In this document: positions 1-2,864 of the stretch, piece by piece
Layout of the letters: each line of letters begins with the position of its first letter
How positions within the stretch are numbered: position 1 is the first letter of the stretch
Source: Halovenus rubra
GTDB taxonomy: Archaea; Halobacteriota; Halobacteria; Halobacteriales; Haloarculaceae
DNA length: 64,000 bases
Assembly: GCF_026586665.1 (NCBI RefSeq)
Contig: NZ_JAODIY010000010.1
Coordinates: forward strand, 1-64,000
Direction: 5' to 3'
Made by a program: the position numbers and the translations under genes
The notes under the pieces: model-generated
Seen by the model: only the letters and a program-made list of their open reading frames with translations
Told to the model about the DNA's origin: nothing
Database searches by the model: none

Positions 1-99
1 AACCGTCTGTTCGATACCCTCGACGATCTTCGTGATGCTGCGCTCTCTGCGCTCGATCGTATCGAAGTACCAGATGTCTTCACGTACTTATATCCGTGA
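1..99 (+). CDS. IS630-type transposase, C-terminal fragment (5' end outside window)
   Basis: Thirty-two in-frame codons are visible before TGA at 97-99, with no start codon in the window. The fragment begins NRLFDTLDDL and ends in VPDVFTYLYP. This resembles the tail of haloarchaeal IS630-family DDE transposases, which typically has an acidic helix after 'NRFF(D/E)SL' and a final 'VP(D/E)V..Y(L/F)'. The catalytic DDE residues lie upstream and cannot be seen. The fit of its stop codon to the proposed IS end, with a TA duplication beside it, supports the call. It could belong to another DDE family. Confidence 0.55.
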   Translation, partial: NRLFDTLDDLRDAALSALDRIEVPDVFTYLYP

Positions 100-102
100 G
101 TA
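1..102 (+). mobile_element. Right end of an IS630-type insertion sequence inserted into nirA
   Basis: The nirA reading frame on the minus strand breaks at about base 103. A plus-strand open frame resembling the C-terminus of an IS630 transposase ends at bases 97-99. IS630 elements insert at TA and duplicate it; the TA at 101-102 sits exactly at the join, so the element would end at base 100 with the transposase stop codon in its terminal repeat. The left end of the element lies outside the window, so the terminal repeats cannot be compared. The family assignment is inferred from the short protein tail and the TA junction. Confidence 0.6.
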
Positions 103-1337
103 TCAGTACCGGTACACGCGATAGAACCACGTTCGAACGGGTGTGGGTCGGGGGAGTACTCTTCCAAAAGCGGTTCGTCGAGGAACGACTCCAGATCCTC
201 GTCAGCGATGTCGGCGACGACAAGGTTCTGCCGCTGGGTCACGCCAATCATCTCGGAGCCATAGGTGTCGGCCAGGTCCGCGAGTTCGACCACCTCTTCG
301 ACGCCGACGCGCCCGGTGAGCACGGACAAACCGACGTAGTTCTGGCCGTCTTTCTGGTCGAAGACGCCGACGTAGTCGCCCGGGGCATCACTCCGGCCAG
401 CGTTGTAGTCATACTGGTCGCGCAGGTCCCGGCCCGCCGTCGGCAACTCGTAGTCGATGTACTCCTCTTGGAGGACCCGGCGGAGTTTTTCCGGGCCCCA
501 CTCGTCGACGAGGAACTTGATACGCGCGTTGAACCGGTCGTCGCGGTCCCCGTAGTCCCGGAAGAGCGCACTCACGCCGGCGGCGACCGCGGTGACATCC
601 TCGGGCCTGCAGAAGATGTCCACGTCGCGGGCGAACCGTGGCTCCTTCCGGGCGAGTCCACCACCGACTCGGATGTTGAACCCCGTCACCTCCTCGCCGT
701 CGACCTGTTTGAGGGCGGGTTCGATGGCGAGGTCATTGATGTCGCCTTGGCCGGCGCCGCGGGTGTCACCAGTGACCGACACCTTCCACTTCCGTGGGAG
801 GTCCGAGTGAGCCGGATTCTGCTTGAACTCGTCGTTGAGTTCCTGAACAAGCGGCCAGACGTTGACGTGTTCGTCAGCGTCCCGGCCGGCCATCGGCGAC
901 CCAACGATGTTTCGCCAAGAGTCGCCACAGGCCTGCACCGATGAGAGGCCGACCGCCTCGATGCGCTCGAAGATCTCGGCGACATCCTCCAGTTTGATCC
1001 AGTGAAGCTGGATCGACTGGCGGGTGGTGAAGTCCGCGTAGGCAGCGCCAAACTCGGGGTTCTCGGCTGGCCCACGGGCAAACTCGTCGGCGATCTCACC
1101 GACCGTCCGCAACTGTTCTGGCGTGAGACGCCCCATTGGCACCCCGATCCTGAGCATGAAGTACGACTCCTGACCCTTCCGCTGGTGGTACAGTCCCCAC
1201 CATTTGAAGCGCTCGAACCAGGCGTCACGTTCGTCTTCCGGGAGCGTCTCCCAACCCTCTCGCGCGAACTCTTCGACGTAGTCTCGGATCTCGGCCCCGT
1301 ACACTTCCTTTTTCCACGTTTCGACTTCCGTCGGCAT
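103..1337 (-). pseudogene. nirA: Ferredoxin-dependent assimilatory nitrite/sulfite reductase, cut by an insertion sequence
   Basis: The frame starts at ATG 1335-1337 (MPTEVETWKKEVYG) and reads as the NirA/SirA haemoprotein family for about 411 codons. The ferredoxin-like half-domains are recognisable, for example FNIRVGGGLARKEPRFAR in the first and MIGVTQRQNLVV in the second. These enzymes reduce nitrite to ammonia (or sulfite to sulfide) with ferredoxin, using siroheme and a [4Fe-4S] cluster held by C-x5-C and C-x3-C motifs. Here the frame reads ACTGTD, the start of C-x5-C, and then runs into the insertion sequence. The second cysteine and the whole C-terminal cluster/siroheme region are missing, so the product should be inactive. 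The rest of the gene may lie beyond the left edge. Confidence 0.85.
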
Positions 1338-1450: not shown

Positions 1451-1804
1451 GTGCGCTCAAACGGGCTCGGAGAGCCGATGTCTGCGTCGTGGCACATGGA
1501 TGCTATCCGGGATAACGGCCCTGAACTGCCCGCTGGTGTGGTCGACGCGACCCAGTTCGATCCAGTCGGTGACCCCGTGTTCGCCACAGCCGACACAGAC
1601 GCCGGCGATTCGCCCCTCAACGGAGCTGGCCTGCACCCCTATATCTACGAACGCCTCCGCCAGGAAGTCGGCGGGCTGACAGTCACAGACGTCGTGGCGA
1701 GCGAGCATCCAGAGGTTACTGACCGGGACAGTTCGGCTGTCGTCGACGCTGAGCCAGGCACCATCGTCCAGTTGCCGGATGGAAGTGACCACAACATGAA
1801 GTAG
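1451..1804 (+). CDS. Hypothetical acidic protein
   Basis: This 117-residue open frame is strongly acidic (about 21 Asp/Glu against 6 Lys/Arg), as expected for a haloarchaeal cytoplasmic protein. ATG codons at 1478 and 1496 are equally possible starts. It would be transcribed divergently from nirA. No domain is recognised. The opposite strand carries an open frame over the same bases (1457-1921) with similar base composition by codon position; that product is less acidic and has an arginine-rich tail. I prefer the plus strand, but the choice is uncertain. Confidence 0.4.
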   Translation: MRSNGLGEPMSASWHMDAIRDNGPELPAGVVDATQFDPVGDPVFATADTDAGDSPLNGAGLHPYIYERLRQEVGGLTVTDVVASEHPEVTDRDSSAVVDAEPGTIVQLPDGSDHNMK

Positions 1805-1982
1805 GCATGCCGACGGGAAACCGTGACGCCCCACGCGATCGTTGCCGGTCTCGACGACGGTCCGGGCTGACACTGCGCGCTCGATGAACGGGATACCGGC
1901 AACAAGAACCGTCGTCCCCAACCGATGACAGAGTTTTCCCCGGGGAGAGTCTATATACTTCGATGGAATTGATACCTACTCG

Positions 1983-2141
1983 ATGGCCGATACAGAGTCC
2001 GAGGACCAAGCGCCGGAGGAACCGGATCAGAATCACCTGCAACATCTCTCGGACGGCGCGGGGTGTACAGAAATATGGGAACATCTCTCGGACTTCCGAG
2101 ACGCGGAGAACGAAGAGGAGACCGATGGCGACAAGACGTAG
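1983..2141 (+). CDS. Small acidic protein with NHL...GCxEIWExLS motif
   Basis: This is a 52-residue frame starting MADTESEDQAPEEPDQ and ending ETDGDKT. Its core reads NHLQHLSDGAGCTEIWEHLS. A second protein in this window, at 31,414-31,524 on the other strand, shares NHL(x6)DGxxGC(x)EIWExLS. Finding the same motif in two independent small frames is good evidence that both are translated. It is very acidic and has one conserved cysteine. Function is unknown. It sits beside a broken integrase gene and may be part of the integrated element. Confidence 0.65.
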   Translation: MADTESEDQAPEEPDQNHLQHLSDGAGCTEIWEHLSDFRDAENEEETDGDKT

Positions 2142-2414
2142 CGACTGGACCCGTCACAGCCCCCCGGGTGGCCTCAGGACCAGCGATACCGGACGCCGTT
2201 TCTCCCTGTGACGCGGTCAAGAGGCGGCGTGGTGCCGTCAGCGCGATGACCCAGTCGAATCGCGGTCCCGACGGCAGCGACGGGGATGATGCCGGGGCCA
2301 GTCGTCGAACCGAGCGCCGGGAGCCGGTGGGAGAGCCTGTTGTGCGTGGCGACCCCGAGATAGCGGGTGGTGACGGTCGGGACGCAGTCCGGTACGACCC
2401 GGCGGACCCCGAGA

Positions 2415-2766
2415 GCCTCGAATCGGCTTCCGAGACGTGCGGTAGAAGGATTTTTTCGTGTAGTCCCTCCTCTGCCGCATCAATCGACTCACAAAAGTTC
2501 AGGAACACGCGCAGCGTCGATAGCTGGCCTTGCAGAGTCACAGGCTTCAGCCCGTCATTGTCCTGACGGTGGACCCGGAAGCGGTGTAGGTCTCGCCCGG
2601 TCAGGTTGTTGAGGTTGTGAATACCGTCGTCATCGCACCACTCGGCAAACTGCTGGAGCCTGTACCCGTGTGACTTGAGAGTTTCAGACGAAATCTCGCC
2701 TTCGCGGTGCTGGACGTAGAGTTTCACAGCATCCTCGGGGGCGAGCGCTTCGAGCTCGTCGCTCAC
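2415..2766 (-). pseudogene. Tyrosine recombinase/integrase, N-terminal fragment
   Basis: About 117 codons read as the SAM-like core-binding (N-terminal) domain of a XerC/D-type integrase: VSDELEALAPEDAVKLYVQH, then a helix with SHGYRLQQFAEWC and TGRDLHRFRVHR. After LLPHVSEADS the frame continues open but no longer resembles an integrase, and the catalytic domain with its R..HxxR..Y residues is absent. The recombinase is therefore truncated and inactive. The likely start is GTG at 2764-2766, overlapping the stop of the upstream zinc-finger gene by four bases (GTGA), which indicates translational coupling. An ATG four codons further upstream (2784) is less likely. The cause of truncation is not visible. 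Confidence 0.75.
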
Positions 2767-2864
2767 GCTCGCGCACCCCCGCATTTAGACCACCCACACT
2801 CGGGGCAGAACGGACACCCACCCGACGGGTGGACGTTCGTGCTTCCGCATTCAGGGCAAGTCAT
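2763..2864 (-). CDS. Tiny zinc-finger protein beside integrase
   Basis: This is a 33-residue protein, MTCPECGSTNVHPSGG onward, with CPEC and CPFC-x2-C knuckles that could bind one or two zinc ions. It is too short for most automatic gene callers. Its ATG overlaps the stop of the gene before it (ATGA) and its stop overlaps the GTG of the integrase gene (GTGA), so the three form one tightly coupled transcription unit. Comparable minute zinc fingers often sit before integrases in haloarchaeal elements, possibly as regulators; that role is inferred. Confidence 0.75.
   Translation of the reverse strand: MTCPECGSTNVHPSGGCPFCPECGWSKCGGARA

What the first reader, a model, noticed from the sequence alone, without database searches (positions are those of the whole stretch)
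1..1337. Insertion sequence splits nirA inside its iron-sulfur cluster motif
The nirA frame stops matching its family right after CTGTD, between the two cysteines of the C-x5-C cluster motif. A TA dinucleotide and a transposase stop codon lie exactly at the join, as expected for IS630-type insertion. The strain probably cannot reduce nitrite (or sulfite) through this enzyme.
Basis: partly seen in the sequence, partly recalled or inferred. Interest (0 to 1): 0.5.

Follow-up and report, generated by a model that had tools for sequence, protein, structure and literature searches.

The report
Jumping gene splits sulfite/nitrite reductase gene
A salt-loving archaeon's only gene of the nitrite/sulfite reductase type has been cut in two by a small mobile element; that is ordinary in itself, but this element and its relatives copy three bases at the landing site instead of the two that their family is known for.

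Summary
Confirmed, with one correction. The window starts at a contig edge inside an IS630-family element. Bases 103-1337 (-) encode the first 411 residues of a NirA-type siroheme enzyme. The other half lies on contig C3 of the same genome (252044-252583, minus), bordered by the element's other end. Joined with one copy of TGA, the halves read as one 591-residue frame, the length of the Halovenus salina protein. Cys-x5-Cys is split as stated, but the native residue is Glu; the 'Asp' is a hybrid codon. No other NIR_SIR gene was found, so a null is likely. No molybdopterin oxidoreductase was found either, so a sulfite role is at least as likely as nitrite.

The correction: the TA at the join is the element's own tip. 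The duplicated target is TGA, 3 bp. Such TNA duplications recur in relatives (61 of 66 miniature elements; 8 of 10 named plasmid copies), while a sister element with near-identical tips is flanked by TA (6 of 6). On the tree the 3-bp type is not one clade. IS630/Tc1/mariner elements are described by a TA duplication; my searches found no report of 3 bp, but ISfinder could not be consulted.

The parts
1..102 (+). Right end (end A) of an IS630-family insertion sequence, cut off by the contig edge; holds the transposase C-terminus (..DVFTYLYP) and its stop codon at 97-99; the tip is ..CCGTGAGTA
   Evidence: same end at C4:15-117 (99% over 103 bases); ends of relatives
103..105 (.). Target-site duplication TGA (TCA on the + strand); the second copy lies next to the nirA tail on contig C3
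   Evidence: head ends ..GGTACTGA, tail begins TGAGTACTGC; one copy gives an open 591-residue frame
103..1337 (-). nirA-type gene, first 411 residues (siroheme nitrite/sulfite reductase), truncated within the C-x5-C motif; remaining 180 residues at G000:C3:252044-252583 (-)
   Evidence: 81% (head) and 79% (tail) identical to Halovenus salina NirA
114..116 (-). Codon of the first cluster Cys (residue 408), the only one of the C-terminal cluster cysteines left on this side
   Evidence: position by count from the start codon at 1337; the later cysteines of the C-x5-C and C-x3-C motifs of homologues lie in the tail
1451..1804 (+). Region upstream of nirA that resembles the region upstream of nirA in H. 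salina (synteny of the head side); coding strand not settled
   Evidence: by eye..DAIRDNGPEL../..GLTVTDVVASEHPEV.. against L026 ..DAIGDNWPKL../..RLTATDIVISQQPEV..

Best explanation
A roughly 1,070-bp IS630-family element transposed by its DDE transposase into CTGAG within nirA, cutting the target with a 3-nt stagger, so that repair left TGA on both sides of an element that begins TACT and ends AGTA. SHOWN: both halves of nirA, both element ends, the 3-bp duplication, the coding-frame test at nirA, a second insertion of the same element in the same genome with a matching TGA, no other NIR_SIR hit. INFERRED: one uninterrupted element copy lies between the halves (the assembly breaks there; its length is taken from relatives); the truncated 411-residue product lacks the C-terminal half with all but one of the cluster cysteines and is inactive; the tail is not expressed as a working enzyme; the transposase is made by -1 slippage on A7G; the 3-bp duplication means a 3-nt stagger. 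The enzyme more likely reduced sulfite than nitrite (moderate confidence). The confidence given is for the insertion with a 3-bp duplication, not for every inferred step.
For: Tail at C3:252044-252583 with the element's other end. Joined nirA flanks: 591 residues with a 3-bp duplication, stop at 433 with a TA duplication; H. salina NirA is also 591. Downstream order DUF6360, CbiX, tetrapyrrole methylase, TrpD-like as in H. salina (partly by eye). Second insertion, C32 end/C4 start..ATTCTGA|element|TGAATCTG..; with a 3-bp duplication the interrupted frame has an ATG upstream of the junction, with a TA duplication it has no start codon upstream. Miniature elements with the same tips: 61 of 66 distinct copies with identical 3-bp flanks, against 26 on average (maximum 38) when left and right flanks are re-paired; none extends to 4 bp. 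Named plasmid copies: 8 of 10. Two PF01077 hits in the genome, the two halves. No PF00384 hit.
Against: Contig C3 shows, 105 bases into the element next to the nirA tail, a single N followed by unrelated sequence, so the assembly does not itself show tail-element-head in one piece; a further insertion or rearrangement between the halves is not excluded. Of 14 own-type copies in whole genomes with both ends located, 4 lack matching 3-bp flanks (L171, L183, L189, L150), as do 2 of 10 plasmid copies (L326, L331) and 5 of 66 miniature copies. At the second insertion the frame is open from stop to stop under both models (148 and 146 codons), so that site is weaker evidence than nirA. Loss of function and the choice of substrate are not tested.
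Confidence: 0.92

Rival explanations
1. Canonical IS630 insertion with a TA duplication: the element is CTCACGG..CCGACAG and TA at each end is duplicated target.
For: TA is present at both junctions; IS630/Tc1/mariner are described by a TA duplication (PMC7325037, passages). At the second insertion (C32/C4) the frame stays open from stop to stop under this model too (146 codons).
Against: At nirA the empty site would carry five extra bases relative to the ten homologues printed and would stop at residue 433; at C32/C4 the frame would have no start codon upstream of the junction; flanks outside TACTG..CAGTA match over exactly 3 bp in 61 of 66 miniature copies.
Confidence: 0.04
2. Assembly artefact: a repeat collapse joins unrelated contigs and nirA is intact in the cell.
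For: The join lies at a contig edge within a repeat; a single N lies near the tail.
Against: Each nirA half runs through the element's exact tip with its own copy of TGA on its own contig; the same kind of junction recurs at an independent site (C32/C4); no third NIR_SIR match is in the genome.
Confidence: 0.03
3. The halves are separated by more than one element: nirA tail - element - about 960 bp (repeat-protein fragment plus truncated transposase) - second element copy - nirA head, as contig C3 would suggest. This is compatible with the 3-bp insertion and differs only in what now lies between the halves.
For: C3 places that segment beside the tail, and a second element copy in the same orientation runs to the end of C3; the rest of the truncated transposase is not in the genome at high identity (best 43-49%).
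Against: The join holds an N, and of the element's tip only the last base is seen before the segment; tail and head flanks are a perfect pair for one insertion.
Confidence: 0.25

Closest known systems
IS630 family of insertion sequences (Tc1/mariner superfamily)
   Same: DDE_3 catalytic domain and HTH_32/HTH_33 DNA-binding part; NCBIfam IS630 equivalog above cut-off for the DDE half of a close relative; about 1.07 kb; short imperfect terminal inverted repeats; two overlapping frames with an A7G slippage site; plasmid relatives are annotated as IS630 family by NCBI
   Different: Target duplication is 3 bp (TNA, mostly TCA/TGA in CTSAG) instead of TA
ISNamo16 and ISNpe3 (names as given in the plasmid annotation)
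   Same: Same family, same two-frame layout with A7G
   Different: Tips TATAGTAACC..; C-TA..TA-G flanks in ISNamo16 fit a TA duplication; 65% and 77% DNA identity to the query over 29% and 8% of it
IS5-family groups with CTNAG targets and TNA duplications (IS1031/IS427; recalled, not from a call)
   Same: Same target and duplication type
   Different: Different transposase family; resemblance is in target choice alone
Haloquadratum SMR-A small mobile repeats (about 110 bp, mobilisation called enigmatic; PMC3119063, passages)
   Same: Similar size to the 108-bp miniature elements found here
   Different: Reported to lack target duplications and transposon-like ends; sequences not compared

Membership tests
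IS630 family | Transposase homologous to IS630, DDE_3 domain | tested here: met
   G013 relative, DDE half: NF033545 149.4 bits (cut-off 100), DDE_3 E 5.9e-33; its first-frame half alone 91.0 and the DDE half of the distant G100 copies 85.1, both under the whole-protein cut-off. The element's own first 199 residues match HTH_33 and HTH_32; its own DDE half is mostly outside the assembled pieces
IS630 family | Terminal inverted repeats | tested here: met
   Imperfect: TACTGTCGG.. / ..CCGTGAGTA; 12-22 of 22 matches in copies whose ends I accepted, 9-13 of 20 in ten plasmid copies
IS630 family | TA target and TA duplication | tested here: not met
   3-bp TGA duplication at nirA (frame test) and TGA at both sides of the C32/C4 insertion; TNA in relatives. 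The filing as IS630 rests on the transposase; the target rule of the family fails for this subfamily
NirA-type siroheme nitrite/sulfite reductase | NIR_SIR_ferr and NIR_SIR domains | tested here: met
   PF03460 E 2.3e-36, PF01077 E 8e-34
NirA-type siroheme nitrite/sulfite reductase | C-x5-C ... C-x3-C cluster cysteines in one chain | tested here: not met
   First Cys on the head, the rest on the tail, 2 contigs
ferredoxin--nitrite reductase (NF007125) | Score above the curated cut-off | tested here: not met
   315.3 bits against 594 for the truncated protein; not scored full length
Nitrate assimilation pathway | A nitrate reductase (molybdopterin oxidoreductase) in the genome | tested here: not met
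   PF00384: 0 matches, genome 98.66% complete; control genomes ring in 11 of 14

The most novel reading that the evidence does not exclude
Within haloarchaeal IS630-family elements the target stagger has changed between 2 nt (TA) and 3 nt (TNA) more than once, with hardly any change of the element tips (TACTGACGG..CCGTGAGTA with TA in one element, TACTGAGGG..CCGTGAGTA with TNA in another of the same genome, G120). This breaks the TA rule by which the Tc1/mariner/IS630 superfamily is described and gives sister transposases in which the determinants of stagger and target choice can be mapped.
Probability: 0.72. Interest if true: 0.58.

Novelty: new variant of a known kind. Interest (0 to 1): 0.42.

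Why it matters
The disrupted gene is a routine case of gene loss by an insertion sequence, in a genus where this enzyme type is patchy (8 of 18 genomes with a match, this one included; 3 of the 4 that are at least 90% complete and at most 5% contaminated). Close relatives with 2-bp and 3-bp duplications and nearly the same tips would let one ask which residues set the spacing of the two strand transfers.

Tried and rejected
TA duplication: rejected by the frame test at nirA. Second intact nirA: none found. Composite or rearranged insertion between the halves: not excluded; the search for the rest of the truncated transposase found no close match. Substrate from neighbours of homologues: in two Haloferax relatives (L050, L089) the neighbours, judged by eye, decided nothing. 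A K-W-K motif is present in 75 of the 80 homologue loci (the other 5 did not match the search pattern), but that this motif tells sulfite from nitrite is recalled, so it is weak. A first extraction of transposase frames failed and was redone by anchors. Miniature element against the plasmid collection: no match. Literature for a 3-bp duplication in IS630: searches listed nothing that I could see to report one (listings and abstract starts; passages read in PMC3119063, PMC6352166, PMC5009743, PMC7325037, PMC6563490; PMC6352166 gives 2 bp for its IS630 element). The library lacks most subscription papers, and ISfinder could not be consulted.

Full report
THE SPLIT GENE. The window is G000:C2:1-64000 and starts at the contig edge. 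Bases 103-1337 on the minus strand encode residues 1-411 of a protein with NIR_SIR_ferr and NIR_SIR domains. The ten homologues printed (of 80 loci fetched), 581-598 residues long, read ACTGT-E-[YF]-C at the break. The frame in the window reads ACTGTD and then leaves the family; bases 1-102 are the end of a transposase gene (..DVFTYLYP, stop at 97-99) and the tip of the element.

THE OTHER HALF. A search of the same genome with the H. salina tail found C3:252044-252583 (-), 79% identical, no stops. It is bordered by the other end of the element..CCGACAGTA|TGAGTACTGC on the coding strand. The head ends ..GGTACTGA. One copy of TGA joins the halves into one open frame of 591 residues, the length of the H. 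salina protein (head 81%, tail 79% identical); a TA duplication would end the frame at residue 433. Downstream of the tail lie DUF6360, CbiX, a tetrapyrrole methylase and a TrpD-like gene in the order seen in H. salina (domains for part of each set; the rest matched by eye), and the region upstream of the head resembles that of H. salina by eye. The two halves were therefore one gene.

HOW MANY ELEMENTS. Close matches show three left ends (nirA tail; C3:253648 to the contig end; C32 end) and two right ends (C2, C4). C32 and C4 form a second insertion, in a predicted membrane protein gene, with TGA on both sides. There, a 3-bp duplication gives a frame with an ATG before the junction; a TA duplication also leaves a frame open from stop to stop (146 against 148 codons) but without a start codon upstream. 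No homologue of that gene was compared. The third left end lies in a truncated transposase, 82-85% identical to copies in six other genomes, several per genome in G141 and G120, whose remainder was not found at high identity. On C3 a single N, 105 bases into the element beside the nirA tail, is followed by unrelated sequence. I cannot tell whether this is a false join or a real second insertion; I give the latter 0.25.

FUNCTION. PF01077 has two matches in the genome, the two halves. In the genus 8 of 18 genomes have a match, this one included, and 3 of the 4 of good quality. PF00384 has no match in this genome (control genomes ring in 11 of 14), so no nitrate reductase of that type was found. 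A PAPS_reduct-domain gene lies near nirA in H. salina. A paper on Natrinema J7-2 lists one gene, NJ7G_0304, both as sulfite reductase and as ferredoxin-nitrite reductase (PMC3402447, passages), so the substrate of this type is unsettled there too. I lean to sulfite.

THE ELEMENT. The transposase belongs to IS630 by profile. In the eight families examined the two halves lie in different, overlapping frames; an A7G run at the overlap was found in six of eight (L171, L173, L176, L199, L207, L209; not in L203 and L195). It is also in the four plasmid copies looked at. NCBI annotates three plasmid relatives as single 1,022-nt genes, a length that needs a frameshift. Frameshifting in IS630 is known (PMC5009743, passages).

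THE DUPLICATION, MINIATURE ELEMENTS. 75 loci were given (5, 30, 40, the last 40 from three genomes); 10 had no pairable ends; 66 distinct copies remained after copies with the same flanks were counted once. Of these, 61 have identical 3-bp flanks (TCA 31, TGA 25, TTA 2, TAA 2, AGT 1), none extends to 4 bp, and re-pairing left and right flanks gives 26 on average and 38 at most in 1,000 trials. The target is CTSAG. The tip pattern, with at most one mismatch, is present in 14 of 142 family genomes.

THE DUPLICATION, FULL ELEMENTS. Own-type copies in whole genomes, with the two of this genome: 10 of 14 with both ends located have matching TNA flanks (L172, L173, L174, L175, L182, L185, L151, L187 and the two here); misses are L171, L183, L189 and L150. 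The ends of L187, L189 and L150 were set by eye on the printed sequence. Copies whose ends I could not place (L184, L186, L188, L190, L152-L155) are not counted. A second lineage, copies of G100 (L202-L206), has TTA, TGA, TCA, TGA at four distinct sites of four (L206 repeats L205); the middle base varies but agrees on both sides. In G059 2 of 3 placed copies match, and 4 more were not placed. In contrast, copies of G120b (6 of 6), G089 (4 of 4), G094 (2 of 2) and G093 (2 of 2) are flanked by TA; without an empty site I cannot exclude TATA there.

TREE. On a tree of 20 transposases, of which 9 were labelled TNA, 10 TA and 1 none, the label needs 2 changes, and an AU test rejects TNA as one clade (p 3.6e-8). 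The tool warns that long branches meet in this tree; some rows are partial, and I chose rows with known duplication, so 'more than once' is likely rather than proven.

NOVELTY. The introduction of PMC7325037 (passages) states that IS630 was linked to Tc1 by the shared TA duplication; PMC6352166 (passages) gives 2 bp for an IS630 element of Thermus. My nine searches showed no report of a 3-bp duplication in this family. I could not consult ISfinder. I file this as a new variant of a known kind.

Noticed in passing
G000:C32:14648 and G000:C4:117 (L134, L003): A second insertion of the same element, in a predicted membrane protein gene (..ELEQIQNVIDRQASNSFK..), with TGA on both sides.
   Followed up: yes
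G000:C8:36936, C45:92101, C45:91967, C47:96740, C48:439615, C3:12443; also G106, G103, G107, G135, G022: Families of 108-bp and 78-bp miniature elements with tips TACTGGTGGCTGTAA..CCAGTA, up to 132 end matches in one genome (G106).
   Followed up: yes
G000:C3:252690: A single N joins the element's first 105 bases beside the nirA tail to unrelated sequence; possible false join or nested insertion.
   Followed up: partly
G000:C3:253142-253654 (L128): Truncated transposase of another multi-copy element, interrupted by the IS630 element; its remainder is not in the assembly at high identity.
   Followed up: partly
G000 whole genome: No PF00384 (molybdopterin oxidoreductase) match; worth a check in a halophile with a nirA-type gene.
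   Followed up: partly
window 1951-2784 (-): ORF whose start looks like the N-terminal part of a tyrosine integrase and whose end looks degenerate (by eye only).
   Followed up: no
Haloquadratum SMR-A repeats (PMC3119063, passages): About 110-bp repeats whose mobilisation is called enigmatic; size fits the 108-bp miniature elements found here. Sequences not compared.
   Followed up: no
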